64,000 nt of DNA from Flavobacteriales bacterium (lineage in GTDB: Bacteria; Bacteroidota; Bacteroidia; Flavobacteriales; Flavobacteriaceae): assembly GCA_027066365.1 (NCBI GenBank), contig JAMONV010000006.1:67532-131531 (forward strand). The letters run 5' to 3'. Positions 28,959-42,526 of this stretch are shown one piece after another. Under the pieces are notes generated by a model. The model saw only the letters and a program-made list of their open reading frames with translations. It was not told where the DNA came from and searched no databases. Position numbers and translations under genes: made by a program. How positions within the stretch are numbered: position 1 is the stretch's first letter; each line of letters opens with the position of its first letter.

Positions 28959-29468
28959 ATGAAAAAACAATCGATAAGATTCAAAAATTACTTTTATACC
29001 TTTACATTATTGTGGCTTTTATGGTATGCATTTACCACCAGCCTTCAACCGGCAGAACTGACCGTTGGAGCCGTATTATCGCTTTTCGTTGCATGGATAA
29101 CGGTGAAATATTTCGATTGTTGCGATCCGATTTTAATTTATCCGGGGCGTATTGTTTATTTTGTCGGATATTTCTTTGTTTTCTTGCGGGCATTGATCAA
29201 AGCCAATTTCGACGTAGCGCGGCGCGTGATTAATCCCAAACTGCCGATTAATCCCGGTATTGTCAAATTCGAGAGCAAACTGCATAACCGTTTTGCCAAA
29301 ATGGTGCTGGCCAACAGTATCACGCTTACGCCGGGTACCTTGACCGTGGACGTTATCGGCAACACGTTTTATATCCACTGGATCGACGTGAAGGGAGGCG
29401 ATCCGGAAACGGCTTACAAGGAAATAGCCGAACCTTTTGAACGCATTTTACTAAAAATATACGGATGA
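28959..29468 (+). CDS. mnhE: MnhE/MrpE-like antiporter subunit (MbxA position)
   Basis: A 169-residue membrane protein of the MrpE/MnhE family, with two or three N-terminal helices and the conserved cytoplasmic block NSITLTPGTLTVDVIGNTFYIHWIDV. In Mrp antiporters and in the MBH/MBX family this subunit belongs to the sodium-translocating module. It overlaps mnhF by 4 bases and heads the operon, the same position as in archaeal mbh and mbx clusters. Confidence 0.92.
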   Translation: MKKQSIRFKNYFYTFTLLWLLWYAFTTSLQPAELTVGAVLSLFVAWITVKYFDCCDPILIYPGRIVYFVGYFFVFLRALIKANFDVARRVINPKLPINPGIVKFESKLHNRFAKMVLANSITLTPGTLTVDVIGNTFYIHWIDVKGGDPETAYKEIAEPFERILLKIYG

Positions 29469-29725
29469 CAGCAATCGTAATCAATATCGCCTTGATGCTT
29501 ATCGGAACCGCCGCCTTCATCGGGCTGTTGCGGTTTGTGAAAGGACCTACCGCCGCCGACCGTGCCGTGGCGTCCGACACACTGTCGGTCATCGGTATAG
29601 CGGGATTGGTACTATTGGCTTATGTATTTCGCCGCTACATTTACACCGACTTGGCGCTGGTGTATGCGGTCCTGGGATTTATCGGAATAATCGTCATTGC
29701 ACGCTTCATAGAGCGGGCATTATAA
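29465..29725 (+). CDS. mnhF: MnhF/MrpF-like antiporter subunit
   Basis: An 86-residue protein with three membrane helices. It has the family block VKGPTAADRAVASDTLS between helices 1 and 2 and a YTDLALVYAVLGFIGIIVIARF end. It is a small subunit of the Mrp-type cation module, second in order as in mbh/mbx/mbs clusters, and it overlaps mnhE by 4 bases. Confidence 0.92.
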   Translation: MTAIVINIALMLIGTAAFIGLLRFVKGPTAADRAVASDTLSVIGIAGLVLLAYVFRRYIYTDLALVYAVLGFIGIIVIARFIERAL

Positions 29726-29735
29726 TATATAAGTT

Positions 29736-30116
29736 ATGGAAACCGTATTACTCATTCTGCACTACGCCGGCCTGTTCCTGATACTGCTGGGAAGCGTGTT
29801 CCTGTTTCTGGGCGCTTTGGGCATTTACAGGATGCCGGATTTGTATAACCGCCTGCAAGCCGGCACCAAGGCAAGTACTTTGGGCGCCATGAGCACCATA
29901 TTGGGCGTGGGCTTGATCCAGCCGTCGTGGTTTATCAAGCTGTTTATTATCGTCATATTCATTGCCTTGGCCAATCCGCTGAGTTCGCATGCACTGGCGC
30001 GAGCGTCCTACAAGGCGGGCGTCAAACCGATTATCACGTCGGATACGGACGAATATGCCGCCGTGGCCGACGAAGCGGGCAGACCGAAAACCGAAAAAAA
30101 CACGCAAACGCTATGA
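29736..30116 (+). CDS. mnhG: MnhG/MrpG-like antiporter subunit
   Basis: A 126-residue membrane protein of the MnhG family with three helices and the typical GALGIYRMPDLYNRLQAGTKAS loop region and LANPLSSHALARASYKAG after helix 3. A polar C-terminal tail of about 25 residues follows. Its stop overlaps the next gene's start (ATGA). It belongs to the cation-translocating module. Confidence 0.92.
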   Translation: METVLLILHYAGLFLILLGSVFLFLGALGIYRMPDLYNRLQAGTKASTLGAMSTILGVGLIQPSWFIKLFIIVIFIALANPLSSHALARASYKAGVKPIITSDTDEYAAVADEAGRPKTEKNTQTL

Positions 30117-30406
30117 TATTCATCGTTTTTTTGGTCATTATGGCCGTCATCCTGATTGCCGCCGCCGTGTATTCGGTGGTGCAAAAGGACTTGCTATACG
30201 CCGTACTGGGAACGGGCGTGGTGAGCCTGGTGCTCTCGGTGTTTTTCTACTTGCTGCAAGCGCCTGACGTGGCCATTACCGAAGCGGCCATAGGCATCGC
30301 CTTAACCACCATTATCTTTATCATCACCATTCGCAACACCACGCGCGACGAAGACAAATACTCCGAAGACTTGATTAACCGCTTTAAACCGGAAGAAGAT
30401 GCTTAA
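30113..30406 (+). CDS. DUF4040 subunit (MbhD/MbxD-like, MrpA C-terminal type)
   Basis: A 97-residue protein with three membrane helices, corresponding to the DUF4040 piece that is part of MrpA in Mrp antiporters and a separate subunit in MBH/MBX complexes. The helix 2-3 region SVFFYLLQAPDVAITEAAIGIA, with its conserved acidic residues, is intact. The start is ATG 30113, overlapping the mnhG stop. It overlaps the next gene by 8 bases. Confidence 0.88.
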   Translation: MIFIVFLVIMAVILIAAAVYSVVQKDLLYAVLGTGVVSLVLSVFFYLLQAPDVAITEAAIGIALTTIIFIITIRNTTRDEDKYSEDLINRFKPEEDA

Positions 30407-31139
30407 AAAAATATTCGTATTGTTTCTGCTCACCGTAACGGGCGTGGCGCTTTGGCAAAGCTTTCGCCATGCGCCTTTCGGCGAAAACCGTGTGGGTGAC
30501 GTGGAAAATCCCGAAACCGTATCGGCCTTTTACCTGAAACATTCGCCGGAGACATTGCACACGGCCAACAGCGTAACGGCCATTGTGGTGAATTTCCGTG
30601 GTTTCGATACCTTGGGCGAAGTAACCGTCTTGTTCCTGGCCGCCACCGGCTTGGCAAGCATACTCTACCGCCGCAAGGAAGACGAGGAGGAAGAAGGCGG
30701 CCACCTGCCGGTGCGTGTCAAACTCAAATCGTCCACCTTGGTGCGCACGGGCGCCAAAATCCTTTTCCCGTTGATTTTGCTCTTGGGCATTTACGTGTTC
30801 GTTCACGGACACCTGACGCCGGGCGGGGGCTTCCAAGGAGGCGCCATTATTGCCACGGGATTTTTGCTCATGTTTATCACCTATAAACGATTTAACGTCA
30901 ATCACAAAATCATGGTTTGGCTGGAAAGCCTGTCGGGATTGGCGTTTGTGTTGATCGGCCTTTACGGGCTGGTGGCTTACGGTTCGTTCCTGCAAAACAT
31001 TCCTTGGACGGGCCGCCTGAACGATTTGATCAGCGGTGGACTTATCCCGTTGATTTACATATTTATCGGTATCAAAGTGGCTACCGAATTGACCAATGTC
31101 CTGGACACCTTGATGAACACCAAACCGCGTAAGAAATGA
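30399..31139 (+). CDS. MbxE-MnhB fusion subunit
   Basis: A 246-residue protein joining two subunits that are separate in archaeal complexes. Residues 1 to about 90 resemble the MbhE/MbxE piece: one helix, then a periplasmic stretch with TANSVTAIVVNFRGFDTLGE, then a second helix. From about residue 108 it is MnhB, with VRTGAKILFPLILLLGIYVFVHGHLTPGGGFQGG. An acidic linker (RRKEDEEEEGG) joins them. The conserved His and Gly-rich block of MnhB is intact. It overlaps mnhC by 4 bases. Confidence 0.85.
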   Translation: MLKKIFVLFLLTVTGVALWQSFRHAPFGENRVGDVENPETVSAFYLKHSPETLHTANSVTAIVVNFRGFDTLGEVTVLFLAATGLASILYRRKEDEEEEGGHLPVRVKLKSSTLVRTGAKILFPLILLLGIYVFVHGHLTPGGGFQGGAIIATGFLLMFITYKRFNVNHKIMVWLESLSGLAFVLIGLYGLVAYGSFLQNIPWTGRLNDLISGGLIPLIYIFIGIKVATELTNVLDTLMNTKPRKK

Positions 31140-31528
31140 ACAGTTTTCAAGAAGTATTTATCCGGTATCGCGAATTGATGGAAATCGCCGTGTACGGCGT
31201 GGCCATTTTGCTGATATTCATCGGCCTGTATGCCGTATTGACCAAAAAACACTTGGTGAAGGTGGTCATCGGGCTGTCCATTATGGATGCAGGCGTCAAC
31301 CTGCTGTTTGTGGGCGTGGGCTACATTACCAACCATACGGCGCCTATCTTTTCGCCGGGCTACGAGGATGCGGCGGACAAAATGGTGGATCCCGTTCCGC
31401 AGGCATTGGTGCTCACGGCCATTGTGATAGGCTTTGCTGTAACGGCCTTGGCTCTTTCGTTGGTTATCCGGTTATATCGTCATCATAAAACCGCAAATAT
31501 CGAACAATTAAACTCATTGCGATGGTAA
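31136..31528 (+). CDS. mnhC: MnhC/NuoK-like subunit
   Basis: A 130-residue protein with three membrane helices, homologous to MrpC and NuoK. Helix 2 carries KKHLVKVVIGLSIMDAGVNLLFVGVGY, and VDPVPQALVLTAIVIGFAVTALALSL is the conserved helix 3 block. It forms part of the ion path linking the antiporter-like pumps. It overlaps neighbours on both sides (ATGA and a 7-base overlap). Confidence 0.92.
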   Translation: MNSFQEVFIRYRELMEIAVYGVAILLIFIGLYAVLTKKHLVKVVIGLSIMDAGVNLLFVGVGYITNHTAPIFSPGYEDAADKMVDPVPQALVLTAIVIGFAVTALALSLVIRLYRHHKTANIEQLNSLRW

Positions 31529-33003
31529 TCAGTCCCGTTCATTATATCGTAGCACCGCTGGCCGCAGCTTTTTTTATTCCGCTGCTCAACAAATTATATG
31601 ACGACGCGGCGCGAGTGGTTCCCGGCATTGTGTTGGGCTATTTGGTGGTAGTGTCGGCCGTGCTGGTGCCGCAAGTGTTGTATAACGGTCCCATTACGGA
31701 AATCATTGCCGGCTGGCGGCCGCCGTTCGGTATCAACCTGGTGATGACGCCTTTTTCGGCCATATTGGCCCTACTGGTGTCGTTTATGGCTTTTGTGATT
31801 TGGCTCTACGGTTTCCGTTTTCGCCGCACCTTGAAAGGCGGCGTGGTGATGTATTACGAAATCCTGCAAATGATGATGACCGCCGGTGCACTGGGAATCA
31901 TCCTGACGGGCGACCTGTTCAACATGTTCGTCTTTGTGGAAATCGCGGGCATTACGGCCATTTCGCTGTCGGCTTTCTACCGTGACCGCGACGGCGCCGA
32001 AGCGGGCTTCAAATATATGTTATTGGGCAGTCTGGCATCGGTGTTCCTGCTTTTGGGTATACTGCTGCTCTACACGCAAACGCATTCGCTCAATATGGCA
32101 CAAATCGCCGAACGCATGCCGGCCGTGGCGCAAGGTGTGAAGATTATAGCGTTGATTTTCCTGCTGGTGTCCCTGGGCATCGAAGCCGAAATGTTTCCGC
32201 TCAACAGCTGGGCGCCGGACGCTTATTCGCAAGCGCCTTCGCCTACGAGTGCGGCCTTTGCGGCGGTGCTGGGCGTGGCGGCCGTGTATGCCTTGGCTCG
32301 TGTGAGCTACACCTTGTTTGATGCGCAATCGGTGAGTATGTTCCTGATGGTCATGGGCTTTCTGACCATGTTTTTTGCCGAAACGGCGGCCATTGCACAA
32401 ACCGACCTGAAACGCATGCTGGCCTATTCGAGCATGGGGCAAATGGGCCTGGTGATGGTGGCGCTGGGCATCGGCAACGAAACGGCTTTGTTCGGGGCAT
32501 TGTTCCTGATTATCAACCATGCCGTTATCAAAGCATTGCTCTTTATGACAGGCAGTTATTTTATTTACAATAACAACTCCAAACGCCTGGTGGCGCTCAA
32601 TGGTATTCACAAGCGCTTGCCGTATGTGTCGTTCCTGTTTTCGCTGGGCGCATTGGCCATCATCGGTTTTCCGCCTTTTTCGGGCTTTTGGAGCAAGTTC
32701 TACATTCTGTCGGGCGCGGCCAAGCGCGAATTGTTGCCGCTCATCATCGGTATTTTGGCCATTACCATTGTGGAAATGACCTATTACCTGCGCGTCATCG
32801 GACGGATTTATTTCGGTAAGGAAGAAACCGAACCGGCATCGCACAAGCCGAGCATCAACGCCTTGGTGGCCATGACGTCCCTGGCGGTGATTATCGTGGT
32901 GTTGGGGCTCTATCCCGGCCTGATTTCCGGTTATCTGCACAAGGCAAGCATGTTCTTGCTGGATAAACAGGCTTATATTCAAAACGTATTAAGTGTAAAA
33001 TAA
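31522..33003 (+). CDS. mnhD: MnhD/NuoN-like antiporter pump subunit
   Basis: A 493-residue polytopic pump subunit of about 14 helices. The conserved helix-5 glutamate is in DLFNMFVFVEIAGITAISL. The helix-7 region is SLGIEAEMFPLNSWAPDAYSQAPSPTSAAFA, and QTDLKRMLAYSSMGQMGLV and GFPPFSGFWSKFYIL are also present. It belongs to the shared antiporter core of Mrp, MBH/MBX and complex I. This is the first of two large pumps in the operon; its stop overlaps the start of the second by one base. Confidence 0.93.
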   Translation: MVISPVHYIVAPLAAAFFIPLLNKLYDDAARVVPGIVLGYLVVVSAVLVPQVLYNGPITEIIAGWRPPFGINLVMTPFSAILALLVSFMAFVIWLYGFRFRRTLKGGVVMYYEILQMMMTAGALGIILTGDLFNMFVFVEIAGITAISLSAFYRDRDGAEAGFKYMLLGSLASVFLLLGILLLYTQTHSLNMAQIAERMPAVAQGVKIIALIFLLVSLGIEAEMFPLNSWAPDAYSQAPSPTSAAFAAVLGVAAVYALARVSYTLFDAQSVSMFLMVMGFLTMFFAETAAIAQTDLKRMLAYSSMGQMGLVMVALGIGNETALFGALFLIINHAVIKALLFMTGSYFIYNNNSKRLVALNGIHKRLPYVSFLFSLGALAIIGFPPFSGFWSKFYILSGAAKRELLPLIIGILAITIVEMTYYLRVIGRIYFGKEETEPASHKPSINALVAMTSLAVIIVVLGLYPGLISGYLHKASMFLLDKQAYIQNVLSVK

Positions 33004-34844
33004 TGGATATCTACGTAGCATTATTGATATTGTTCGGCGGCGCCTTAGTAGCCTTTTTTATCGACGACCTGAACCGGCGATGGACAGGACCGGTGGCTTT
33101 GGCTTTTGCCTTGGCGGCGGCCGTGGCTTTTGCCTTGACGCCTGAGGGCCAACACTTACGCCTGTCGATCCTGGGCTTCGACTTGCATTGGCAACAGGAT
33201 TCGGCGGCGCGCTTTTTCGGATGGATTGTGCTGGGACTGACGGTGCTTGCTTTAATCTATTCGGTCAAATATATGGAAGGCAAGGCGCGTTTGGGCTATT
33301 TTTATGCGGTTTTCCTGATGAGTGCCGGTGGCATGCTGGGCGTGTCGGTGAGCCGCGACCTGATTTCGTTTTTTGTGTTTTGGGAAATCATGACTTGGAC
33401 GTCGTTTCTGCTGGCCATTTATAATGCCTACTACGGCGTGGAAACCAAGGGCATCAAATACATTATTTTCAGTTCCATAGGTGCCTATGCCATGCTGACT
33501 GCCATTGTGATGGCGGGGCATTATTACCACACCTACGATCTAGCCGATCTGTGGCAGGCCGGAGCGTTTTCGTTCCGTAGCTATTGGTATATTCCCGCTT
33601 CCCTGATGCTGGGATTTGCTGTAAAGGCGGCGGTGGTGCCGTTCCACGTTTGGGCGCCGGACGTATATGCCAAAACGCCGATGTCGTTTACCACCGTATT
33701 TTCGGGCGCCATGTCCAAAATGGGCGTCTTGGGCCTGCTTGTGGTGCTTACGGGCCTTTATGCCGGCGGCGGCGACGGTATGTTCTGGTTCCGCTGGATT
33801 TTGGGCTGGCTGGGCGGTATCACGGCGGTGGCGGGCACATTGCAAGCCATTCGCCAAAACGATGCCAAGTATTTGCTGGCCTATTCGTCGGTGGCGCAAT
33901 TGGGCTATATCGTAACGGCCTTGGCCACGGGCACGCGCCTGGGATTGATGGCGGCGCTGTATTTGGCCGTGTTGCATGCGGCTTTTAAGGGCGCGCTGTT
34001 TATGGTGGCGGGCGCGGTGGAAAAACAAGCCGGCACTACGGATTTTCGTGAAATTTCGGGCTTGATCAAACGCATGCCTTGGACCTTCTTTGTGGCGTTG
34101 GTGTCGGTGATTTCGTTGGCGGGCGTGCCGCCGTTGGGCGGTTTTGTGGGCAAATGGTTGCTCTACGAAAGCCTGATTACCGAAACGCACAGTTATTTCC
34201 TGGTGATTGTGATATTTTTCTCGTCTACGGCCGCCTTTTTGTATGCCTACCGCTTCCTGTTCGGGCTGTTCCTGGGACAAGCCGAAGAGGAAATCAAGCA
34301 GGTGAAGGAAGCGTCGTGGTGGATGCTGCTGCCGATGCTGGTTTTGGCGGCGGTGTCGATCGTAACGGGCATGTATCCCGGATTGATATTTAAGCCGGCT
34401 GCCGACGTGCTGGCCGGATGGGGCTTGCCGGTGCCGGATTGGCATATGAGCATCTTGCTGAATAGATGGGGCAATCAAGTGGATTTGGTTACCGTCGGCT
34501 CTACGGTGGGCGTCGTGTTTGTGCTGGTGGCTATTTACATTACGTTGAAAGGCCGCAAGACCACCAAGTGGGTCAGCACGAAGGATATTTCCACGTCGGG
34601 CGAAATTCCGTCGCCGCAAGACAACCTGACCTTCCAACGGGGCTTTTTCAAACCGTTCGAACGGGCTATCGGCCGTCTGTATGATTGGGACGCCAACGGC
34701 ATTTGGGAAGATTTGGGCGCGGCGTTGGAGGCGTTTTTCGGTTTTGTACGTAAAATCTACACGGGGAATGCGCAGACGTATGCGTTGTATGTGATTGTGT
34801 TTTTGGTTGTTTTGTTGATTTTTGCTAGGAGAATATTTGGGTAA
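33003..34844 (+). CDS. NuoL/MnhA-type second pump subunit (MbxH'-like)
   Basis: A 613-residue antiporter-like pump, the second large one. Conserved blocks are FFVFWEIMTWTSFLLAIY (helix-5 Glu), KAAVVPFHVWAPDVYAKTPM, NDAKYLLAYSSVAQLGYI and GVPPLGGFVGKWLLY. The C-terminus adds about 110 residues after the core: a polar stretch with TFQRGFFKPFERAIGRLYDW and a final helix, reminiscent of an extended lateral arm. Two such pumps distinguish MBX/MBS-type from MBH-type complexes, which have one. The gene ends at 34844, right before the first repeat-filled gap. Confidence 0.92.
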   Translation: MDIYVALLILFGGALVAFFIDDLNRRWTGPVALAFALAAAVAFALTPEGQHLRLSILGFDLHWQQDSAARFFGWIVLGLTVLALIYSVKYMEGKARLGYFYAVFLMSAGGMLGVSVSRDLISFFVFWEIMTWTSFLLAIYNAYYGVETKGIKYIIFSSIGAYAMLTAIVMAGHYYHTYDLADLWQAGAFSFRSYWYIPASLMLGFAVKAAVVPFHVWAPDVYAKTPMSFTTVFSGAMSKMGVLGLLVVLTGLYAGGGDGMFWFRWILGWLGGITAVAGTLQAIRQNDAKYLLAYSSVAQLGYIVTALATGTRLGLMAALYLAVLHAAFKGALFMVAGAVEKQAGTTDFREISGLIKRMPWTFFVALVSVISLAGVPPLGGFVGKWLLYESLITETHSYFLVIVIFFSSTAAFLYAYRFLFGLFLGQAEEEIKQVKEASWWMLLPMLVLAAVSIVTGMYPGLIFKPAADVLAGWGLPVPDWHMSILLNRWGNQVDLVTVGSTVGVVFVLVAIYITLKGRKTTKWVSTKDISTSGEIPSPQDNLTFQRGFFKPFERAIGRLYDWDANGIWEDLGAALEAFFGFVRKIYTGNAQTYALYVIVFLVVLLIFARRIFG

Positions 34845-34846
34845 AT

Positions 34847-34939: not shown

Positions 34940-35012
34940 AGGGGGATGGGAAATTGTTTAACTATGATTGAAAAAGTAAAAAGAGAAAATAATAATCAAT
35001 AAAAAAATAAAG

Positions 35013-35405
35013 ATGCCTAATCAAAATAAGCCATATCGCTTTACTTTCGAGAAATTGGATGTATGGTGGAATGCTATTGCATTGGGCAAATTGGTTTATA
35101 AAATTACCAATGATTTTCCCAGGGAAGAAAGATATTCGTTTACCGATCAAGTGCGGCGAAGTGCGGTGTCCGTTTCATCCAATATAGCCGAAGGAAGCGG
35201 CAAGTCAAGTACCAAAGAGCAATCGCGATTTCTCAATATGGCTTATTCCAGTCTAATGGAATTAATGAGCCAACTTATGCTGGCCAAAGAATTGAATTAT
35301 ATTAATGATGAACATCTTATGGAAGTGAGAGAAAAAATTATCCATATTGCCAACCAATTGAACAATTTGAATAAATATTATCAAAATCGAACCAAAACCA
35401 AATAA
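35013..35405 (+). CDS. Four-helix bundle protein (23S rRNA IVS / TIGR02436 family)
   Basis: A 130-residue helical protein of the S23/intervening-sequence four-helix bundle family: FTFEKLDVWWNAIALG at the start, FPREERYSFTDQVRRSAVSVSSNIAEG as signature, then KEQSRFLNMAYSSLMELMSQ. The family is related in fold to the Avd proteins of diversity-generating retroelements, but no reverse transcriptase or template repeat is nearby. The gene is AT-rich, unlike the complex genes around it, and is bounded by the same 8-mer repeat in opposite orientations. It sits in the operon between the second pump and the NuoH-like subunit and looks inserted. Function unknown. Confidence 0.85.
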   Translation: MPNQNKPYRFTFEKLDVWWNAIALGKLVYKITNDFPREERYSFTDQVRRSAVSVSSNIAEGSGKSSTKEQSRFLNMAYSSLMELMSQLMLAKELNYINDEHLMEVREKIIHIANQLNNLNKYYQNRTKTK

Positions 35406-35469
35406 GGATGAAAAAACAAAATCCAAACATACCAATAAACCAGTCGAACAAATTATCAAAAAATAATCT

Positions 35470-35511: not shown

Positions 35512-36477
35512 ATGGAAAAAATAGGCATCCAACTAACCGGTATCATTATAACCACCATATTGGCCTTCACGGTAGGTATGTTTTATGGAGGTTTGCGCCG
35601 CAAGATAATCGCACGCGCTCAAAACCGTATCGGGCCGCCGGTGTGGCAGAATTTTTTGGACTTGCTCAAATTGCAGGGCAAAACCACCAACATAACGCAC
35701 GGCGTGATGACGCATTTGGCGCCGGTGTGGGTGGTGGTGGCCGCCGTTACGGCCTTGCTGTTTATTCCCGTGCTGCATGCGGGGCTGTGGTTCGATAATT
35801 TTAACTTCAAAGGCGACCTGATTTTCCTGCTCTACATTATGGTATTCGGTTCGCTGGGCATGGCTTTGGGCGCCGGCGAAACGGGCAATCCCAATTCGGC
35901 CATAGGTGTTTCGCGTGGGTTGTCGCTGCTGGTGGGTTACGAAATCCCGTTCGTACTGTCGCTGGTGGCGGTGATGTTGCAATTCCATACCACGTCGCTC
36001 ACCGACCTGATGCACTACCAACAGGAAACGGGCCGGTGGATCCTGCTGGAAAATCCGTTTGCCTTCCTGGCGGCATTATTTTCGGCCTTGGGTATGTTCC
36101 ATTATTCGCCGTTCGACATTATCGGTGCACCGGCCGAGTTGGCTTCGGGACCGATGTCGGAATTCGGCGGCAAGTATTTGGGAACGCTTATGACGGGCGG
36201 TTCCATTTTCGCCTTTGTCAAGTTGGTATTGCTCACCGACATTTTCCTGGGCGGCGCCGGCCATCCCGGCACATTGACGGGCATCTGGGCCGTGCTGGCG
36301 GGCTTGGGCGAATTGATTGTCAAAACCTTCCTGCTCTACATGATCCCGGTGAGTATAGGCATCGTCATGCCGCGCTTCCGCACCGAGCAGGCGGTAAGGT
36401 TTTTCTGGAAATGGCCGTTGGCATTCGGCATCCTGGCCATTATTTGGGCTTTGTATAAACGAAAATATTTCAGCTAA
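35512..36477 (+). CDS. NuoH-like membrane subunit (MbxM-like)
   Basis: A 321-residue polytopic subunit of the NuoH/HyfC/EchB/MbxM family that links the peripheral arm to the pumps. The family blocks RAQNRIGPPVWQNFLDLLKL, GAGETGNPNSAIGVSRGLSLLVGYEIPF and SPFDIIGAPAELASGPMSEFGGKY (cytoplasmic loops facing the NuoB/NuoD subunits) are intact. It is separated from the second pump by the inserted four-helix-bundle cassette, but followed 17 bases later by the NuoB-like gene, so the original operon order is kept. Confidence 0.92.
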   Translation: MEKIGIQLTGIIITTILAFTVGMFYGGLRRKIIARAQNRIGPPVWQNFLDLLKLQGKTTNITHGVMTHLAPVWVVVAAVTALLFIPVLHAGLWFDNFNFKGDLIFLLYIMVFGSLGMALGAGETGNPNSAIGVSRGLSLLVGYEIPFVLSLVAVMLQFHTTSLTDLMHYQQETGRWILLENPFAFLAALFSALGMFHYSPFDIIGAPAELASGPMSEFGGKYLGTLMTGGSIFAFVKLVLLTDIFLGGAGHPGTLTGIWAVLAGLGELIVKTFLLYMIPVSIGIVMPRFRTEQAVRFFWKWPLAFGILAIIWALYKRKYFS

Positions 36478-36494
36478 TTATAAATCAACACATT

Positions 36495-37142
36495 ATGTCC
36501 GACACCAAAGACATACGCATCATCACGCGACCGACGAAGGAACAAATCGAGCAGGCCAAAATCGACTTTGCGCCGCGCTGTACTTCGGCGGGACGCGTCA
36601 ACGATAAAGAGACGCAAAAGACGGTGGAATTCATCCTGAATTTTGCGCGCAAACATTCCCTGTTTCTGCTGGCTTACGGCACCGGCTGCGGCGCCATTGA
36701 AATTCCGGCCACGCTGACGTCCCGCTACGATGCCGAACGCTTGGGCATCCGGGGCGCCGCCACACCGCGCCAAGCCGACGTGCTGATGATCACGGGCTAT
36801 TTGTCCGTCAAGACCTTGAAGCGCGTCATTCGCGTATATGAACAAATGCAGGATCCCAAATACGTGGTGGCCTTCGGCTCGTGTACCATCAACGGCGGCA
36901 TGTATTTCGACAGTTACAACACCATTAAGGCCTTGGACCGCTACATTCCGGTGGATGTGTATATCGCGGGCTGTATGCCGAGGCCGGAAGCGGTGTTGAA
37001 GGGCTTTGCCAAATTGCAGGAAATGATCCAAAACGGCAACGCCGGCAACGGCGAGTGTTACCGTAAAAACCTGGATTGGTACCGCGCCAATCAACGGAAA
37101 GTGATTAAGAATTGGGATTTTCCGGATGAATACAATTGGTAG
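36495..37142 (+). CDS. NuoB-like iron-sulfur subunit (MbxJ/MbsJ-like)
   Basis: A 215-residue cytoplasmic subunit that carries the cluster next to the active site. Only three conserved cysteines are visible: C65 in YGTGCGAIEI, C130 in FGSCTING and C160 in AGCMPRPEA. Complex I has a Cys pair at the first position and MBH a C-x2-C, so one cluster ligand is missing here. Three-cysteine, site-differentiated coordination is what is described for the sulfur-reducing MBS complex. About 45 residues follow the core domain. The gene ends at the start of the second repeat-filled gap. Confidence 0.9.
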   Translation: MSDTKDIRIITRPTKEQIEQAKIDFAPRCTSAGRVNDKETQKTVEFILNFARKHSLFLLAYGTGCGAIEIPATLTSRYDAERLGIRGAATPRQADVLMITGYLSVKTLKRVIRVYEQMQDPKYVVAFGSCTINGGMYFDSYNTIKALDRYIPVDVYIAGCMPRPEAVLKGFAKLQEMIQNGNAGNGECYRKNLDWYRANQRKVIKNWDFPDEYNW

Positions 37143-37292
37143 GAGAAAGGAGAAAGGGAAAAGGGGAAAGTGTTGTTGAAAAGTTGAAGAGTTGAACAGT
37201 TGAATAGATGGGACGGATGACCGGTGACAGATGACCGATGAAAATGACCGATGACAGGTGACCGATGATTGATGAAAAGTTGAAGAGTGAAT
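37143..37292 (+). repeat. Mixed short-period repeats in the NuoB-NuoC gap
   Basis: Purine-rich GGAGAAA units (37143-37170) are followed by GTTGAAAA/GTTGAACA 8-mers. Then come heptamer units GATGACC/GGTGACC (about 37209-37268), and further GTTGAA words. The composition matches the gaps at 38521 and 40091. No gene is supported in this stretch. Confidence 0.85.
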
Positions 37293-37343
37293 AGAATTAA
37301 AAATGAAAATGAGGAAACATCCAATAAAAATAATAGTTCAAAA

Positions 37344-37982
37344 ATGAGTAAAATTGATTGTACAAATGAAATTCAATTTGATAAAGTCTCTAATGAAGCA
37401 GATTTTAATTGTGCATTGGCAAATTACTTGAAAAATAAATTGGATGATAATTATGAAATAACTATTCAAAAGCCTTTATATTATGTTCAACAAATTAAAT
37501 ATTTAAAACAATCAGATAATAAAAAAGAAGATTATTTGCCTGAATATATAAATGATTATAACAGCTATAAAATTGATATACTTATACAAGAAAAAATTAA
37601 AAGTAAAAGAATTCCACGCGTAGCAATAGAACTTAAATACAATGATATAACAACACATGATTTAATTACATATAGTCATAAGTTAAACCAACATAAACTC
37701 TTGTTTCCTTACCTAAGATATGGGGTGATAATTGCCAATAAAGACAAATTAACACAAAAAATATTTAAACACGGAAAGGACTTTGATTTTATTTTCGCAT
37801 TTTCCATTAAGGAAGAAAACAATAAACAATTACCTATCTTATTAAGTTTAATAAATGATGAAATTAAATATAGTGAGAAACTTGAAAAGCATTTATTTAA
37901 GAGGAATACCAATGCCATATTATTCCATAAACAATTAATTATCACAAAAAACAAGAATTATAAAATGACATGGAAACAATAA
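37344..37982 (+). CDS. AT-rich nuclease-like protein, PD-(D/E)xK pattern
   Basis: A 212-residue protein from ATG 37344; an earlier GTG lies in the repeat. It has a recognisable D...ExK pattern: YKIDILIQ, then about 14 residues later VAIELKYND. This is followed by LRYGVIIANK and DFDFIFAF strands as in restriction-endonuclease-fold proteins. No specific family was recognised. Its base composition is far more AT-rich than the surrounding complex genes (one 60-base line counts 15 G+C), pointing to a foreign origin. Its last codons overlap the NuoC-like start by 13 bases, so it is embedded in the operon between two core subunits. Confidence 0.6.
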   Translation: MSKIDCTNEIQFDKVSNEADFNCALANYLKNKLDDNYEITIQKPLYYVQQIKYLKQSDNKKEDYLPEYINDYNSYKIDILIQEKIKSKRIPRVAIELKYNDITTHDLITYSHKLNQHKLLFPYLRYGVIIANKDKLTQKIFKHGKDFDFIFAFSIKEENNKQLPILLSLINDEIKYSEKLEKHLFKRNTNAILFHKQLIITKNKNYKMTWKQ

Positions 37983-38524
37983 TTACGAAATTAAACGAAA
38001 TATTTAATGTCCGGCCGAAAATATTACGCGACCGCCAAATCACGGTGGAGGTGGATAAAAACCGTGTGTCGAGTATGTTGCTCTACCTGAAAAATCAAAT
38101 GGGATTTATTCATCTGAACCATATTTCATGTGTGGATTGGATCGAGGAAGGGCAATTCGAACTGGTGTATATCGTCTGGCGGCCGGAGGATAAAACCACC
38201 GTGCTGGTCAAAACGCGCATCGACCGCGAAAATCCCGAAATGGAAAATATCGATACCATTTGGGACCAAGCGCATACCTACGAGCGCGAAATCCGTGAAA
38301 TGTTCGGCATCGAATTTCCGGGCCTGAAAGCGCCGCGTGAATTTATCCTGGAAGGCTGGGAAGGTCCGCCGCCGATGCGCCGCGACTTCGACACGCGTAA
38401 ATACGCCATGGAAACCTACGAAACACGTCCCGGACGTGAGGACGCACAAAACGTGCGCGAATATATCACCAAACGCACCGGCGAAAAAGTGCCGGATTTT
38501 GCGAAGAAATACTCGAGGGATTGA
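37970..38524 (+). CDS. NuoC-like subunit (MbxK-like)
   Basis: A 184-residue subunit of the NuoC/30-kDa family that scaffolds the catalytic large subunit. The C-terminal signature DQAHTYEREIREMFGIEFPG is intact, followed by PREFILEGWEGPPPMRRDF, which is the NuoC-type tail contacting NuoD. The start overlaps the end of the inserted nuclease-like gene, so in the present arrangement its translation may depend on that gene. It ends at the repeat region starting at 38521. Confidence 0.9.
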   Translation: METIITKLNEIFNVRPKILRDRQITVEVDKNRVSSMLLYLKNQMGFIHLNHISCVDWIEEGQFELVYIVWRPEDKTTVLVKTRIDRENPEMENIDTIWDQAHTYEREIREMFGIEFPGLKAPREFILEGWEGPPPMRRDFDTRKYAMETYETRPGREDAQNVREYITKRTGEKVPDFAKKYSRD

Positions 38525-38595
38525 CGGATGACCGGTGACCGGTGACGGATGTAAGTTGTTGAAAAGTTGAAGAGTTGAATAGTTGAATAAATAAT
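38521..38595 (+). repeat. Mixed heptamer and 8-mer repeats
   Basis: GATGACCGGTGACC heptamer units are followed by GTTGAAAAGTTGAAGA type 8-mers, beginning at the stop codon of the NuoC-like gene. Orientation is the same as at 37172 and 40091. No inserted gene follows here; instead a palindromic repeat array occupies the gap. Confidence 0.85.
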
Positions 38596-38665
38596 CTGGA
38601 AACGGGAAATTAGATAGAATGAATAATGAACAATTAATAATGAATAATGTGATTGAAGGGATTAT

Positions 38666-38951
38666 GTCATTCCGAGGAAAGCGAAGCGGCAGCTTGTCCC
38701 GAATTTACTTCGGGAAGGAATCTCTTTCTTATGACTATTTTCAAATGAGATTTCTCACGTTCGTTCGAAATGACAGTCTAATGTCATTCCGAGGGAAGCG
38801 ACGCAAGGAGCGGCGAGGAATCTCTATGTTGGACTTTATAGGAATGAGATTCCTCACATTCGTTCGGAATGACAAAATCCTAAATCCTAAATCCCAAATC
38901 CTAAATCCTAAATCCGAATGAATGAGATTTCTCACATTCGTTCGAAATGAC
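38666..38951. repeat. Palindromic GTCATTCCGA repeats with an AAATCCT heptamer block
   Basis: Two full copies (38666-38774 and 38783-38873) begin with GTCATTCCGAGG(G)AAGCGA and end with TTCGTTCG(A/G)AATGAC, so each is bounded by near inverted ends. A right-half copy lies at about 38918-38951. Between them is a heptamer array of AAATCCT/AAATCCC units (38876-38915). This is a class of palindromic intergenic repeat I associate with Bacteroidota chromosomes; it has no coding capacity. The first copy contains an inner CCCGAA/TTCGGG hairpin. Confidence 0.85.
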
Positions 38952-38971
38952 AAACAGGTAAATTAGAAGAC

Positions 38972-40087
38972 ATGATTAAGATAAACAAGAACAAAGAAAC
39001 CACCTTATTCATCGGGCCGCAGCATCCGGGGATAACGGGGAATATGATGGTCAAATTGAAGGTGATCGGCGACACGGTGATGAGTGCCGAAACGCATATC
39101 GGCTACCTGCACCGGGCCTTTGAAAAGCTTATCGAACAACGCAACTGGTTGCAGTCCTTCACCTTGCTTTGCCGCTTCTGTGTGCCGGAGCCGGATCCCA
39201 TGGAGCTGACCTACGCTCGGGCGGTGGAAGCCATCGAAGGACGCGAGGTGCCGCCGCGGGCACAATATATCCGCACTATTGTGGCCGAATTGGCACGTAT
39301 CCAATCCTTCCTGCTGTGGTACGGCGGTCAGGCCGGTTCGGCGGGGCTCTATACGCTGGGGCAATGGACCGTGGGCGACCGCAACTACGTCCTGGACCTG
39401 TTCGAGGACCTGACCGGCGCGCGGATTTACCACATGTATATTTGGCCGGGCGGCGTGCGCCGCGACCTTCCCAAGGGCTGGAAAGACAAGGCGTTGCGCG
39501 TCATGGACTACTTGGAAAAACGCCTGACCGACTACAACCATCTACTCTTTGACAACGCCGTGTTCCAAAAACGGGCGCAAGGCGTGGGCATCATTCCCAA
39601 GGATAAAGCCGTGGAATGGGGCGTTACCGGTCCGCCGCTCAAAGGCACAGGCATCGCACACGACGTGCGCAAGGACGAGCCATACGCCGCTTACGGGGAG
39701 CTGGACTTCGACATTCCCACCCACGAAGGGGGCGACGTCTGGGCACGGGCATTGGTACGCCGCGACGAAATCAAACAATCCATCCGCATCGTGCGGCATG
39801 CATTGGAAAAAATGCCGGGCGGCAGCTACTATAACCGCATTCCCAATCCCATGAAATGGCGCGTGCCGAAAGGCGAAGCATGGGTCAAAACCGAAAGCGT
39901 ACGCGGTGAAATCGGTTTCTACGTGGTCAGCGACGGCAGCGAAAAACCGAGACGCGTCCATCTGCGCGGCGCCGCCTATACCAACGGTATCACCGTACTG
40001 GAAAAAATCCTGCCGGGCGAAAATATCGCCGATGTGTCGTTTATCTTGAATTCATTAGGTGCGTGTCCGCCGGAAATGGAACGGTAG
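38972..40087 (+). CDS. NuoD-like large subunit (MbxL/MbsL-like)
   Basis: The 371-residue large (hydrogenase-homologous) subunit. N-terminal blocks FIGPQHPGITGNMMVKLKV and HIGYLHRAFEKLIEQRNW are as in NuoD and MbxL. Of the four Cys that bind [NiFe] in hydrogenases, C67 and C70 (LLCRFCVPEPDP) and C365 are present, but the last position is Glu (ACPPE, residues 364-368). Hydrogenase activity is therefore not expected. The tail ends 3 residues later without the cleaved extension of hydrogenases. It follows the palindromic repeat region and precedes the third cassette. Confidence 0.9.
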   Translation: MIKINKNKETTLFIGPQHPGITGNMMVKLKVIGDTVMSAETHIGYLHRAFEKLIEQRNWLQSFTLLCRFCVPEPDPMELTYARAVEAIEGREVPPRAQYIRTIVAELARIQSFLLWYGGQAGSAGLYTLGQWTVGDRNYVLDLFEDLTGARIYHMYIWPGGVRRDLPKGWKDKALRVMDYLEKRLTDYNHLLFDNAVFQKRAQGVGIIPKDKAVEWGVTGPPLKGTGIAHDVRKDEPYAAYGELDFDIPTHEGGDVWARALVRRDEIKQSIRIVRHALEKMPGGSYYNRIPNPMKWRVPKGEAWVKTESVRGEIGFYVVSDGSEKPRRVHLRGAAYTNGITVLEKILPGENIADVSFILNSLGACPPEMER

Positions 40088-40090
40088 GAC

Positions 40091-40178
40091 ATGTTGAAAA
40101 GTTGAAAAGTTGAACAGTTGAATAGATGGGACGGATGACCGATGACCGATGAAAATGACGGATGACCGATGACCGATG
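40091..40178 (+). repeat. 8-mer and heptamer repeats left of the second four-helix-bundle gene
   Basis: GTTGAAAA/GTTGAACA units are followed by GATGACC heptamers. The heptamer word returns inverted (GGTCATC) at 40609-40671, after the four-helix-bundle gene, again framing it as an inverted pair. Confidence 0.88.
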
Positions 40179-40205
40179 GGAAATTTATTAAATAGAGTTA
40201 TAAAA

Positions 40206-40709
40206 ATGAATAACGAAAAGGAATACACGGGCGAAACCAAATTCAAATTCGAGCGCTTGCGTGTGTGGCAGGAGAGTATGGATTTTGCAGAAGAAATGCA
40301 TGCTTTGGCCAATGGTTTTCCCGATAATGAAAAATTCAATTTATCATCTCAATTACGCCGCGCAGCGGATAGCATTTCTTTAAATATTGCCGAAGGATCC
40401 ATTTTTCAATCCAATAAAGAACAAAATAAATTCATCGGTTATGCTATACGTTCCTTAGCCGAAACCATTACTTGCTTGCATAAAGCCAAACGAAGAAATT
40501 ATATTGAAGAAGATATTTTTAATCAACATTATAAAACGGCATATAAACTAATGAACATGCTCTTAGCCTTTTCCAATTCATTAAAAAATACCGATAAAAA
40601 ACGATCACCGATCACAGATCATTCATCCCAACAACACACACACCGGTCATCGGTCACCGGTCATCGGTCAAAAACCACCAATCTTCAATCCAAAAACAAT
40701 CAAAAATGA
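40206..40709 (+). CDS. Four-helix bundle protein (TIGR02436 family), second copy
   Basis: A 167-residue protein from ATG 40206; an in-frame ATG at 40176 lies at the repeat edge. The core FKFERLRVWQESMDFAEEM, FPDNEKFNLSSQLRRAADSISLNIAEG and KEQNKFIGYAIRSLAET matches the family signature and the first copy at 35013, though the two are clearly diverged. The last 38 or so residues (with HRSSVTGHRS) are a translation of the flanking inverted heptamer repeat, so the frame has run into the repeat. Its stop overlaps the start of the next gene (ATGA). AT-rich, inserted between core subunits; function unknown. Confidence 0.82.
   Translation: MNNEKEYTGETKFKFERLRVWQESMDFAEEMHALANGFPDNEKFNLSSQLRRAADSISLNIAEGSIFQSNKEQNKFIGYAIRSLAETITCLHKAKRRNYIEEDIFNQHYKTAYKLMNMLLAFSNSLKNTDKKRSPITDHSSQQHTHRSSVTGHRSKTTNLQSKNNQK
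40609..40671 (-). repeat. Inverted heptamer repeat inside the end of the second four-helix-bundle gene
   Basis: Units GATCACC, GGTCATC and GGTCACC, the reverse complement of the GATGACC words at 40120-40178, lie within the 3' end of the coding frame. They complete the inverted pair around the gene. Confidence 0.85.
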
Positions 40710-42526
40710 GCATTATAGATCTTAAAGGCATATTAGTCCCGCTCGGTGCATTAAAGCAAATCGCCAAGGAGCCGCATACTATTCCCTATCCGGATAAGAC
40801 CAAGGAGGTGTCGGACCGGTACCGGGGATTTCATTATAATGATTTGGAATTGTGTATCGGTTGCGGCAACTGTTCCACCATTTGTATGAACGAAGCCATT
40901 GACATGGTGGAAGTGGAAGGCGTGGAAGGGCAGCCGGGCGATAGCGGATTGCGTCCGCGTGTGGATTACGGGCGTTGTTGTTACTGTGCCTTGTGTGTGG
41001 ACGTATGTCCCACCGGTTCGTTGAACATGACTAAGGACTTTATCAAAGTGTCACCGGATCCGTACGACTTCCTGATGATCCCGGGCAAGGATAATCCCGA
41101 AGATAAAGATCTCATCAGCTTTACGGCCGACAAAGATACCAGCCTTAACCTGTTTGACCGCGTGCCGATGCGCGAATTGGAGCCCGAAACGCGTGTCAAG
41201 TCGTTTGCAGAGGTATTTTTGGGCTATACCGAAGAAGAAGCCCGCATTGAAGCGAGCCGTTGTATCAATTGCGGTTTGTGTACGGAAAACTGTCCGGTGC
41301 ATATGCACATTCCCGAATATATCAACGCCATTTCGCGCGGCGACGACGAAGCAGCCATTAAGATTATCTACGACAACAACGACCTGCCGGAAATGTGCGG
41401 TAAGGTGTGTACGCGCCGTTGCGAAAGCATTTGTTCGTTGCAAGTGCGCGGCGAGGCCGTGGCCATCCGCTGGTTGAAACGTTACGCCACCGAACGGGCT
41501 GAAAACGCCGATATGATCCGCAAAATCGTTAATCCCGAAATTCGTGAACCCAACGGTATCAAGGTAGGCATCATCGGAGCCGGTCCCGCCGGATTGACCG
41601 CCGGCTACTACCTGACCTTGAAGGGCTACGACGTTACCATATACGAAGCCAAAAAAGATCCCGGCGGTATGATTATGTACGGCATTCCCAAATACCGCCT
41701 GCCGTACGACAGTATCCAAAAACAGGTGGATTACATGGAGTCCGTGGGCGTAAAAATTCATTTTAACACCGTGGTAGGCAAGGATATTACTTTTGAAGAT
41801 ATTTACAACCAACACGATGCCGTATTCATGGGCATTGGATTACAGAAGGGCTGGAACCTGGGCATCGAAGGCGATGATGCCGAAGGCGTTTGGACCGCCG
41901 TCGATTTCTTGGGCAAAGTGAACGCCGGAGAACCGGTGGACATTGGCAAGAAGGTGGTCGTGGTGGGCGGTGGCGACGTGTCCATGGACAGTTCGCGCGT
42001 AAGCCGCCGCTTGGGCGCTGAAGTGGTGCAACTCTACCGCCGCCGCATCGTGGACATGCCCGCCGACGACGAGGAAATCGAAGGCGCACTGGAAGAAGGC
42101 GTGGAAATCATCGAGAAAGCCATTCCCACGCGTATCATCAAGGACGAAAACGGCCGCCTGAAAGCCATCGAATACGTACGGGCACAACTGGTCAAACCGG
42201 AAGGCGGCGGACGTCCGCGACCGGTGCCTATCGAAGGCAGCGAAACCATTATCGAATGCGACGCCGTGATTGCGGCCATCGGCCAAAAAGCGGATTTCAG
42301 CCTGCTGCCTAAGGAGGTGGAAGAAGCGCTGGAATTTGTACGTGGCAAAATCAAAGTGGACGACAACCGCTTTACGGGCTATCCCAAACTCTGGGCCGGC
42401 GGCGACGCCGTCAAATACGGCAAAGTGGATGCCATTTCGGCCATCGCCGACGGTTTTTATGCGGCGGGAAGTATTGACGAGTATTTCGGGGGAAAGGCAC
42501 CAAAAAGCAGTAAGCATCACGTTTAG
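40706..42526 (+). CDS. Ferredoxin-like subunit fused to an NfnB/GltD-type FAD-NAD(P)H module
   Basis: A 606-residue protein with two parts. Residues 1 to about 115 are the NuoI/MbxN-like polyferredoxin with two 4Fe-4S motifs: C50, C53, C56, C60 and C91, C94, C97, C101 followed by Pro. After a linker, residues about 165-606 match NfnB and the glutamate synthase small subunit. They carry cysteines 186, 189, 192, 196 and 231, 235, 239, 243, the FAD-binding GIIGAGPAGLTAGYYL (about 288), and the NAD(P)H-binding VVVVGGGDVSMDSSRVSRRLGAE (about 417). The C-terminal AGGDAVKYGKVDAISAI closes the FAD site. Fusion to the last complex subunit suggests that NAD(P)H, or electrons from flavin, feed directly into the membrane complex. 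The direction of flow is inferred. Confidence 0.9.
   Translation: MSIIDLKGILVPLGALKQIAKEPHTIPYPDKTKEVSDRYRGFHYNDLELCIGCGNCSTICMNEAIDMVEVEGVEGQPGDSGLRPRVDYGRCCYCALCVDVCPTGSLNMTKDFIKVSPDPYDFLMIPGKDNPEDKDLISFTADKDTSLNLFDRVPMRELEPETRVKSFAEVFLGYTEEEARIEASRCINCGLCTENCPVHMHIPEYINAISRGDDEAAIKIIYDNNDLPEMCGKVCTRRCESICSLQVRGEAVAIRWLKRYATERAENADMIRKIVNPEIREPNGIKVGIIGAGPAGLTAGYYLTLKGYDVTIYEAKKDPGGMIMYGIPKYRLPYDSIQKQVDYMESVGVKIHFNTVVGKDITFEDIYNQHDAVFMGIGLQKGWNLGIEGDDAEGVWTAVDFLGKVNAGEPVDIGKKVVVVGGGDVSMDSSRVSRRLGAEVVQLYRRRIVDMPADDEEIEGALEEGVEIIEKAIPTRIIKDENGRLKAIEYVRAQLVKPEGGGRPRPVPIEGSETIIECDAVIAAIGQKADFSLLPKEVEEALEFVRGKIKVDDNRFTGYPKLWAGGDAVKYGKVDAISAIADGFYAAGSIDEYFGGKAPKSSKHHV

What the first reader, a model, noticed from the sequence alone, without database searches (positions are those of the whole stretch)
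28959..42526. MBX/MBS-type membrane oxidoreductase operon in a Bacteroidota genome
Thirteen consecutive subunit genes follow the order of archaeal mbx/mbs clusters: MnhE, F, G, DUF4040, MbxE-MnhB, MnhC, MnhD, second NuoL-type pump, NuoH, NuoB, NuoC, NuoD and a polyferredoxin. Two large pump subunits point to MBX/MBS rather than the one-pump hydrogenase MBH, and no quinone-site or NuoEFG dehydrogenase genes are attached. Established knowledge: in Thermococcales, MBS reduces sulfane sulfur (polysulfide) with ferredoxin while pumping ions. Inference: this bacterium may couple sulfur or disulfide reduction, or ferredoxin/NAD(P)H redox exchange, to a sodium or proton gradient.
Basis: partly seen in the sequence, partly recalled or inferred. 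Interest (0 to 1): 0.85.

Follow-up and report, generated by a model that had tools for sequence, protein, structure and literature searches.

The report
NADPH-linked sulfur-reducing ion pump
A hydrothermal-vent bacterium carries a relative of an archaeal membrane machine that probably uses NAD(P)H electrons to cut sulfur chains while pumping ions, a version built from known parts but not yet tested in the laboratory.

Summary
The operon is real. Genes matching all 13 subunits of the Pyrococcus furiosus sulfane reductase MBS lie at 28959-42526, in order, interrupted by three unrelated small ORFs. The redox core is MBS-type, not quinone- or hydrogen-reducing: the NuoB-like subunit keeps three cluster cysteines and lacks the fourth, both quinone residues are replaced in the NuoD-like subunit, and the core groups with P. 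furiosus MBS apart from complex I.

The "polyferredoxin" is wrong. The last gene is an MbsN-type 2[4Fe-4S] domain fused to an NfnL/GltD-like FAD, NAD(P)H dehydrogenase, with 16 ligand cysteines invariant in the 59 fused proteins aligned. The likely donor is NAD(P)H.

The fused form occurs in several phyla, next to Rex or ArsR regulators in some. One pump (MbsH) lacks a charged-axis histidine in 35 of 35 fused rows but in 0 of 8 unfused ones, as expected for a weaker donor, though few independent events underlie this.

Bacterial MBX (Thermotoga, Endoriftia) and an NADPH-dehydrogenase-linked archaeal MBX are in print, so this is a new variant of a known kind. Polysulfide reduction is inferred. 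Side finding: 23S-IVP genes, many in hairpin units, sit between the operon's genes.

The parts
28959..29468 (+). MnhE / MbsA
   Evidence: PF01899 E 2.9e-41
29465..29725 (+). MrpF / MbsB
   Evidence: PF04066 E 3.6e-16
29736..30116 (+). MnhG / MbsC
   Evidence: PF03334 E 2.3e-25
30116..30406 (+). MbhD / MbsD
   Evidence: PF13244 E 3.4e-19
30399..31139 (+). MbhE-MnhB fusion / MbsE
   Evidence: PF20501 + PF04039
31136..31528 (+). MnhC / MbsG
   Evidence: PF00420 E 3.1e-30
31522..33003 (+). MnhD / MbsH pump 1; axis residues K250->V and H330->L (P. furiosus numbering)
   Evidence: PF00361; best PDB chain 6u8y_H; axis
33003..34844 (+). MbsH' pump 2; K217, K248, K399, E128 kept, H336->L
   Evidence: best PDB chain 6u8y_X; axis
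35013..35405 (+). 23S_rRNA_IVP gene inside an inverted-repeat unit (not a subunit)
   Evidence: PF05635 E 7.3e-36; terminal stem
35512..36477 (+). NuoH / MbsM membrane anchor
   Evidence: PF00146; best PDB chain 6u8y_M
36495..37142 (+). NuoB / MbsJ, three cluster cysteines C65, C130, C160, no fourth
   Evidence: best PDB chain 6u8y_J 218 bits; motif
37287..37982 (+). unassigned 231-aa ORF in the B/C gap (not a subunit)
   Evidence: no Pfam or NCBIfam family
37970..38524 (+). NuoC / MbsK
   Evidence: PF00329 E 3.3e-27
38972..40087 (+). NuoD / MbsL; C67xxC70 and C365, no quinone His/Tyr
   Evidence: best PDB chain 6u8y_L 362 bits; residues
40176..40709 (+). second 23S_rRNA_IVP gene (not a subunit)
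   Evidence: PF05635 E 1.3e-31
40706..42526 (+). fusion: MbsN-type 2[4Fe-4S] domain (about 1-126) + NfnL/GltD-type 2[4Fe-4S]-FAD-NAD(P)H dehydrogenase (about 150-600)

Best explanation
A bacterial membrane-bound sulfane reductase (MBS type) whose electron-input subunit has been fused to a pyridine-nucleotide dehydrogenase. Proposed path: NAD(P)H -> FAD -> two [4Fe-4S] of the GltD/NfnL-like part -> two [4Fe-4S] of the MbsN part -> the three-cysteine cluster of the NuoB/MbsJ subunit at the MbsL/MbsM chamber. There, polysulfide or an organic per/disulfide is split, and the reaction drives the antiporter-like pumps and the Mrp Na+/H+ module. Shown here from sequence: subunit set and order, the three-cysteine motif, loss of quinone residues, the fused dehydrogenase with conserved ligands, and the clade with P. 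furiosus MBS. Inferred: NAD(P)H as physiological donor, sulfane sulfur as acceptor, direction of flow, coupling, and weakened pumping by MbsH.
For: MBS core: best PDB hits are 6u8y (NuoD 362 bits against 260 for complex I and 147 for MBH; NuoB 218 against 135 for chloroplast NDH and 116 for MBH). The position of MbsJ C25 is Gly in 59 of 59 bacterial rows; 58 of 59 carry the single-Cys GTGCG motif (L048 has GTGCC). Quinone His and Tyr positions are T and V in 59 of 59, but H and Y in the genome's own complex I and in chloroplast NDH. MBS paper: the p-cluster has three Cys ligands, C25 is dispensable, Nqo4 H38/Y87 are absent (PMC7684303, parts 1-4 of 7 read). Tree: 59 bacterial rows 100/99, with P. 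furiosus MBS on their side and complex I apart 100/100. Donor: the C-terminal part matches NfnL (5jca_L), GltD and DPD in sequence and predicted fold; 16 ligand Cys invariant in 59 distinct fused rows (70 with repeat fetches). Regulation: Rex directly upstream in 6 of 6 Fermentibacterota loci with a 5' flank; an ArsR regulator upstream in 4 of 4 Acidobacteriota/Planctomycetota/Krumholzibacteriota loci and downstream in one Spirochaetales locus (several of these were themselves the queries). Host: no PF00374 match, four POR-family matches, a PhsA/NrfCD-like operon with weak sulfide:quinone reductase and rhodanese matches nearby. T. maritima mbxA rises 4.36-fold with sulfur (PMC9431562, passages).
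Against: No biochemistry on any fused form was found. MbsH axis residues K250 and H330 are replaced here, and MbsM E104 and E193 are absent in all bacterial rows aligned, so coupling may differ. The pump contrast is not uniform: MbsH' H336 is His in only 3 of 8 unfused Chromatiaceae but in 11 of 16 filled fused rows outside the Bacteroidota branch. MbsL keeps three of the four [NiFe]-ligand cysteines rather than two, so the chamber chemistry need not be identical. The host also has complex I and two COX1 matches, so sulfur may not be its main acceptor. Reverse flow is possible. The locus set was collected with the fused protein, which biases it towards fused forms, and the 70 rows were filtered on a ferredoxin CxxCxxCxxxC motif, so the invariance of those Cys is partly by selection. 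The ferredoxin part of the AF2 model is low confidence. The tree used LG+G4, and treekit warned that long outgroup branches meet.
Confidence: 0.62

Rival explanations
1. The same complex runs in reverse: ion motive force drives electrons from sulfide, persulfide or polysulfide uphill to NAD(P)+, supplying reductant in a sulfidic vent.
For: The host has COX1-type oxidase matches and complex I and a weak sulfide:quinone reductase match, so it could build a gradient. In Endoriftia the putative Mrp-Mbx is listed among complexes of unknown function/direction and shares first neighbours with the rTCA cycle (PMC11636981, passages).
Against: T. maritima mbxA is induced by sulfur (PMC9431562); the host has four POR-family matches, typical of enzymes that supply reduced ferredoxin.
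Confidence: 0.15
2. Ferredoxin:NAD(P)+ oxidoreductase pump: electrons go between ferredoxin and NAD(P)+ through the fused subunit, and the NuoD/NuoB core is only a coupling element (the original MBX proposal).
For: Stated for MBX in PMC6349859 and PMC3035292 (passages); the fused subunit is NfnL-like.
Against: In MBS the chemistry is at the p-cluster in the chamber (PMC7684303), and that site is the conserved part here. A linear Fd-NAD(P) path would bypass it.
Confidence: 0.12
3. A quinone- or proton-reducing complex (Nuo-like or a [NiFe] hydrogenase).
For: Overall homology: PF00346, PF01058 and PF00146 are shared with complex I.
Against: Quinone His/Tyr replaced in 59 of 59 rows and at least one [NiFe] ligand Cys missing (the C-terminal motif is CPPE in the window); no PF00374 match in the protein or in the genome; a separate complex I exists.
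Confidence: 0.05

Closest known systems
Pyrococcus furiosus MBS (MBX), PDB 6u8y
   Same: Matches to all 13 subunits, two antiporter-like subunits, fused MbsE, three-cysteine p-cluster motif, no quinone residues
   Different: MbsN is fused to an NAD(P)H dehydrogenase; MbsL keeps CxxC + C instead of two Cys; MbsH lacks K250 and H330; MbsM lacks E104 and E193
Thermotoga maritima MBX
   Same: 13-subunit bacterial MBX, mbxA induced by sulfur (PMC9431562); mbx operon described as transferred from Thermococcales (PMC2246101)
   Different: Described there as ferredoxin-dependent. Whether its last subunit is the same fusion was not checked on its sequence; T. maritima rings with the PRK13984 model and one of the 14 controls, not named, exceeds its cut-off
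Dehydrogenase-linked MBX of Desulfurococcaceae
   Same: A sudA (NfnL-like) gene in an MBX-like operon, with NADPH oxidation by protons or sulfur already proposed in 2010 (PMC3035292, passages)
   Different: Separate gene in archaea, antiporter genes present only in Staphylothermus marinus of the three named; related there to a formate-hydrogenlyase-type complex
Chromatiaceae MBS-like operons
   Same: Same core clade, three-cysteine motif
   Different: MbsN domain of 130-144 aa alone, not fused; MbsH K250 and H330 kept in 8 of 8
NfnL / GltD / dihydropyrimidine dehydrogenase
   Same: NAD(P)H-FAD-2[4Fe-4S] module; structural match of the model
   Different: Here wired to a membrane sulfane-reductase core; no NfnS-type partner among the operon's Pfam annotations

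Membership tests
MBS (membrane-bound sulfane reductase) | 13-subunit set MbsA-E, G, H, H', J-N with two antiporter-like subunits | tested here: met
MBS (membrane-bound sulfane reductase) | Proximal [4Fe-4S] held by three cysteines of MbsJ | tested here: met
   Sequence motif only: C65, C130, C160 present, no fourth Cys at the C25 place; metal coordination itself not testable
MBS (membrane-bound sulfane reductase) | Loss of complex I quinone residues (Nqo4 H38, Y87) | tested here: met
   T22 and V71 in 59 of 59 bacterial rows
MBS (membrane-bound sulfane reductase) | Two residual [NiFe]-ligand cysteines in MbsL | tested here: inconclusive
   Both equivalents are present (C70, C365), plus a third (C67); 57, 57 and 56 of 59 rows keep C67, C70, C365
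MBS (membrane-bound sulfane reductase) | Charged axis E138/K250/H330 in MbsH | tested here: not met
   E kept, K250->V, H330->L in the window
MBS (membrane-bound sulfane reductase) | Stand-alone MbsN taking electrons from ferredoxin | tested here: not met
   MbsN domain is fused to an NfnL/GltD-type dehydrogenase
MBS (membrane-bound sulfane reductase) | Polysulfide reduction coupled to Na+ pumping | not testable with these tools
   needs biochemistry
Complex I (Nuo) | Tandem CC in NuoB and quinone His/Tyr in NuoD | tested here: not met
   the genome's own complex I (L084) has them
[NiFe] hydrogenase group 4 (MBH/Ech) | Four [NiFe]-ligand cysteines (two CxxC) | tested here: not met
   only three in the window; no PF00374 match
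Nfn bifurcating transhydrogenase | NfnS partner subunit | tested here: inconclusive
   none among the operon genes by Pfam; the rest of the genome was not searched for it

The most novel reading that the evidence does not exclude
A 'low-gear' class of sulfane reductase. When the donor changed from ferredoxin to the less reducing NAD(P)H, one of the two proton pumps (MbsH) was disengaged by loss of its charged-axis residues, so that fewer ions are moved per electron pair. Donor module and pump number would thus have been matched by evolution within one complex family, spread over many bacterial phyla.
Probability: 0.28. Interest if true: 0.78.

Novelty: new variant of a known kind. Interest (0 to 1): 0.6.

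Why it matters
How many ions a complex-I-type machine pumps for a given redox drop is an open question, and the MBS authors asked what would happen if one MBS pump were added or inactivated (PMC7684303). These bacteria may already contain that experiment: the same core with unfused (presumably ferredoxin-type) input and K250/H330 intact in MbsH, or with NAD(P)H-type input and that axis broken. It also points to an energy-conserving NAD(P)H:sulfur route in bacteria that carry complex I and terminal oxidases, not only in hyperthermophilic fermenters.

Tried and rejected
Polyferredoxin reading of the last gene: rejected. Hydrogenase and quinone readings: rejected on residues and, for complex I, the tree. 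cytb561 gene at 42746-43267 as a part: rejected, because as a query it matched only the window's own loci among all held. Electron bifurcation by the NfnL-like part: considered, left as unlikely because no NfnS partner is annotated in the operon; the genome was not searched for one. AF2 of the fusion gave a confident dehydrogenase half but a poor ferredoxin half, so cluster distances were not measured. Search in other phyla with MbsL to remove the sampling bias: not possible. Within Bacteroidota the MbsL search found the same two genomes as the fusion search. Counts of pump residues differ slightly: one search split single-ORF pumps by BLAST hits and mis-sorted some contig-edge rows (among its other-phyla rows it shows one K at 250 and one H at 330), so one search is used for MbsH. 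One search's list of 'single ORF' pumps includes L012, L031 and L032, which look like contig-edge artefacts. Rows dropped before the tree: repeat fetches and fragments, and loci without both NuoB and NuoD at sufficient length. Paper searches (10 of 10) showed me no account of the bacterial fusion, but the library lacks most subscription papers; the reviews by Schut and colleagues were not read. Papers: PMC7684303 parts 1-4 of 7; passages only of PMC6349859, PMC9431562, PMC8415708, PMC11636981, PMC2246101, PMC10553843, PMC3035292, PMC10373932, PMC3534657, PMC11270868; other papers were seen in search listings only.
Full report
Observation. The 13.6-kb stretch at 28959-42526 (+) encodes, in order, MnhE, MrpF, MnhG, MbhD, MbhE-MnhB, MnhC, MnhD, a second pump, NuoH, NuoB, NuoC, NuoD and a 606-aa last protein. 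Three further ORFs lie in the gaps: two 23S_rRNA_IVP genes and an unassigned 231-aa ORF. The window is part of contig C6 of a 2.03-Mb, 99% complete genome. The nearest named loci are Flavobacteriales MAGs. The operon is rare in the phylum: 2 of 395 Bacteroidota genomes, the own genome being one of them, match the fused protein at E <= 1e-100, and the same 2 of 395 match NuoD at E <= 1e-95. In a search of 40 genomes (own plus 39 relatives), 4 of the 8 other same-genus genomes and one genome of another family in the order (G418) have a full-length match to the fusion family; several of these genomes are drafts of 80-96% completeness.

What the core is. For NuoD, NuoB, NuoH and both pumps the best solved structure is P. 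furiosus MBS, 6u8y. The NuoB-like subunit has cluster cysteines 65, 130 and 160. Of 59 bacterial rows, 58 show the single-Cys GTGCG motif, one (L048) has GTGCC, and all 59 have Gly where MbsJ has C25. The MBS structure paper reports a proximal cluster held by three cysteines, a dispensable C25 and the absence of Nqo4 H38 and Y87 (PMC7684303, parts 1-4 of 7 read). Here these two positions are T and V in 59 of 59 rows, while the genome's own complex I on contig C18 has H and Y. The NuoD-like subunit keeps three of the four [NiFe]-ligand cysteines (C67, C70, C365 in 57, 57 and 56 of 59 rows), one more than P. furiosus MBS. A NuoD+NuoB tree of 62 rows puts the 59 bacterial rows together (100/99), with P. 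furiosus MBS on their side and two complex I rows apart (100/100). It used LG+G4, treekit warned of long outgroup branches that meet, and no hydrogenase was included.

The donor. The first 126 residues or so of the last protein match MbsN/NuoI, and 150-600 match NfnL, GltD and DPD by sequence and by predicted fold. NCBIfam PRK13984 aligns end to end but below its curated cut-off (648 of 946 bits). Sixteen ligand cysteines are invariant in 70 rows, 59 of them distinct, and in a chosen 43 of these. These rows had been kept for a length of 560-700 aa and a CxxCxxCxxxC motif in the first part, which left out L056 and L062, so the first eight are partly invariant by selection; the eight of the GltD part were not selected for. 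The FAD and NAD(P) glycine motifs are also invariant. The YRRR stretch after the second motif suggests NADPH; this is recalled family knowledge, not a test. The Rossmann half of the AF2 model is confident (pLDDT mostly above 90), the ferredoxin half is not. By record title the 58 fused relatives come from Bacteroidota, Fermentibacterota, Acidobacteriota (with Aminicenantes), Krumholzibacteriota, Planctomycetota, Cloacimonadota, Fibrobacterota, Spirochaetota, Pseudomonadota, and two records labelled Chlorobiota that sit inside the Bacteroidota branch. In eight Chromatiaceae loci of the tree, and in L079 (Spirochaetales, not in the tree), the MbsN part stands alone.

Regulators. Rex lies directly upstream of MnhE in 6 of 6 Fermentibacterota loci that have a 5' flank (L044, the query, and L046, L047, L049, L052, L073). 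An ArsR-family gene lies directly upstream in 4 of 4 loci from Acidobacteriota, Planctomycetota and Krumholzibacteriota (L040, L041 and L057 were queries; L038 was not), and downstream in one Spirochaetales locus (L053, a query). With these queries none was found in the Bacteroidota or Chromatiaceae loci, nor in L048 or L103; other regulator families were not looked for. Rex senses NADH/NAD+ (established knowledge), which fits a pyridine-nucleotide-linked enzyme.

Pumps. In the MBS paper MbsH E138, K250, H330 and MbsH' E128, K248, H336 form the charged axis. In one search (43 rows plus P. furiosus) the H330 position is not His in 35 of 35 fused-type rows and is His in 8 of 8 Chromatiaceae. K250 is kept in 12 of 35 fused rows (non-flavobacterial Bacteroidota) and in 8 of 8 Chromatiaceae. 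The window has V and L. MbsH' keeps E128, K217, K248 and K399 in every filled row, but its H336 runs against the simple picture: His in 0 of 21 filled Bacteroidota rows (L in the window), 3 of 8 Chromatiaceae and 11 of 16 filled other fused rows. MbsM E104 and E193 are absent in all bacterial rows, fused or not. The MbsH contrast rests on very few independent events: the fused rows form two groups around the Chromatiaceae. The MBS paper gives 41 kJ/mol per 2 e- for MBS with two pumps, and 12 for MBH with one. My own estimate with recalled potentials (NAD(P)H -320 mV, ferredoxin about -480 mV) is about 10 kJ/mol for NAD(P)H to the same acceptor, i.e. in the MBH range.

Host. The genome has no PF00374 match, four POR-family matches, two COX1 matches, and one molybdopterin enzyme, PhsA-like, with NrfC/NrfD-like partners and weak rhodanese and sulfide:quinone reductase matches nearby; all of these NCBIfam matches are below the curated cut-offs. 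On C18 a run of ORFs has the order and sizes of nuoA-N; NuoA, B, C, D and antiporter-type and NuoI-like matches were seen, the others were not profiled, and no NuoEFG was identified in the 20 kb read. So sulfane sulfur is probably part of its metabolism, but it is not a strict fermenter.

Prior work. Bacterial MBX is known in Thermotoga maritima, where mbxA rises 4.36-fold with sulfur (PMC9431562, passages) and the operon is described as archaeal in origin (PMC2246101, passages), and in Endoriftia (PMC11636981, passages). A 'dehydrogenase-linked MBX' with a sudA homologue, proposed to oxidise NADPH with protons or sulfur, was described for Desulfurococcaceae in 2010 (PMC3035292, passages). What I did not find in the held library is the fused subunit in these bacteria, the Rex/ArsR link, or the pump-axis contrast (searches; none of them asked for Rex or ArsR by name).

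Judgement. MBS-type core: near certain from sequence. NAD(P)H link: very likely. Polysulfide or per/disulfide reduction as physiological direction: likely, untested. Weakened MbsH: a correlation worth testing.

Side observation. The IVP genes in the gaps resemble intervening sequences of rRNA placed in an mRNA. The own genome has three IVP matches, two of them in this operon and a third, partial with a stop, near a contig end. Of 17 IVP hits (two window IVPs as queries) in 1.42 Mb of loci, which are mostly centred on the operon, all 17 lie in its gaps. In L003 there is one in each of four gaps, while L005, L006 and L016 have redox-arm gaps of 60 bases or less and none. The window's first unit folds with a stem of 34 pairs closing around the IVP ORF (z -6.9, 0 of 20 shuffles as good). 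Of 16 units tested (L011 was not), the own left and right flanks pair better than the left with any foreign right flank in 9, rank second in 4 and rank 5th, 6th and 9th in 3; against mononucleotide shuffles 9 of 16 have z below -3, and the window's second unit has z -0.4. Cleavage by RNase III, known for rRNA intervening sequences (recalled), is a guess here. A library search on such proteins returned one paper, on rRNA insertions of CPR bacteria.

Noticed in passing
34845-35511 and 40088-40705; L003, L008, L009, L011, L013, L014, L015, L035, L104: 23S_rRNA_IVP genes sit in the gaps between the redox-arm genes of this operon, at different gaps in different relatives; 17 of 17 IVP hits in the fetched loci are inside the operon. 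Many are flanked by complementary stretches (own flanks pair best in 9 of 16), and the first window unit folds with a stem of 34 pairs closing around the ORF. Looks like rRNA-type intervening sequences inserted in an mRNA.
   Followed up: partly
34850-40670: Short tandem repeats of 7-8 bases (GTTGAATA, GACCGAT and their reverse complements) are concentrated in the expanded gaps of this operon.
   Followed up: partly
37287-37982: 231-aa ORF in the NuoB/NuoC gap without any Pfam or NCBIfam match; by eye it resembles a PD-(D/E)XK-type nuclease.
   Followed up: no
L038, L040, L041, L044, L046-L049, L052-L055, L057, L066, L073, L103: In the tree branch outside Bacteroidota and Chromatiaceae (with L103, from a genome of the window's order) the first antiporter ORF is 978-1166 codons long, stop to stop, in 16 of 16 loci, and both pump matches fall within one ORF: the two pumps appear fused into one protein.
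   Followed up: partly
L103 and L104 (genome G418): One genome of the same order carries two fused-type MBS operons (L104 read only from MnhG on) from two distant branches of the tree, suggesting lateral transfer.
   Followed up: partly
L048, L053, L066: A subgroup (Ectothiorhodospiraceae, another gammaproteobacterium, Spirochaetales) has Tyr in place of the C-terminal MbsL cysteine, and Ala in place of C70 in L048 and L066; possibly a different substrate.
   Followed up: no
L113 (G000:C29:1-14000): Sulfur locus of the same genome: PhsA-like molybdopterin enzyme, NrfC/NrfD-like subunits, weak rhodanese and sulfide:quinone reductase matches, all below curated cut-offs; two ORFs without an NCBIfam match look YeeE-like by eye.
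   Followed up: partly
30001-34000, 38001-40000: G+C of 0.52-0.53 in parts of the operon against 0.36-0.47 in the other 2-kb windows.
   Followed up: no
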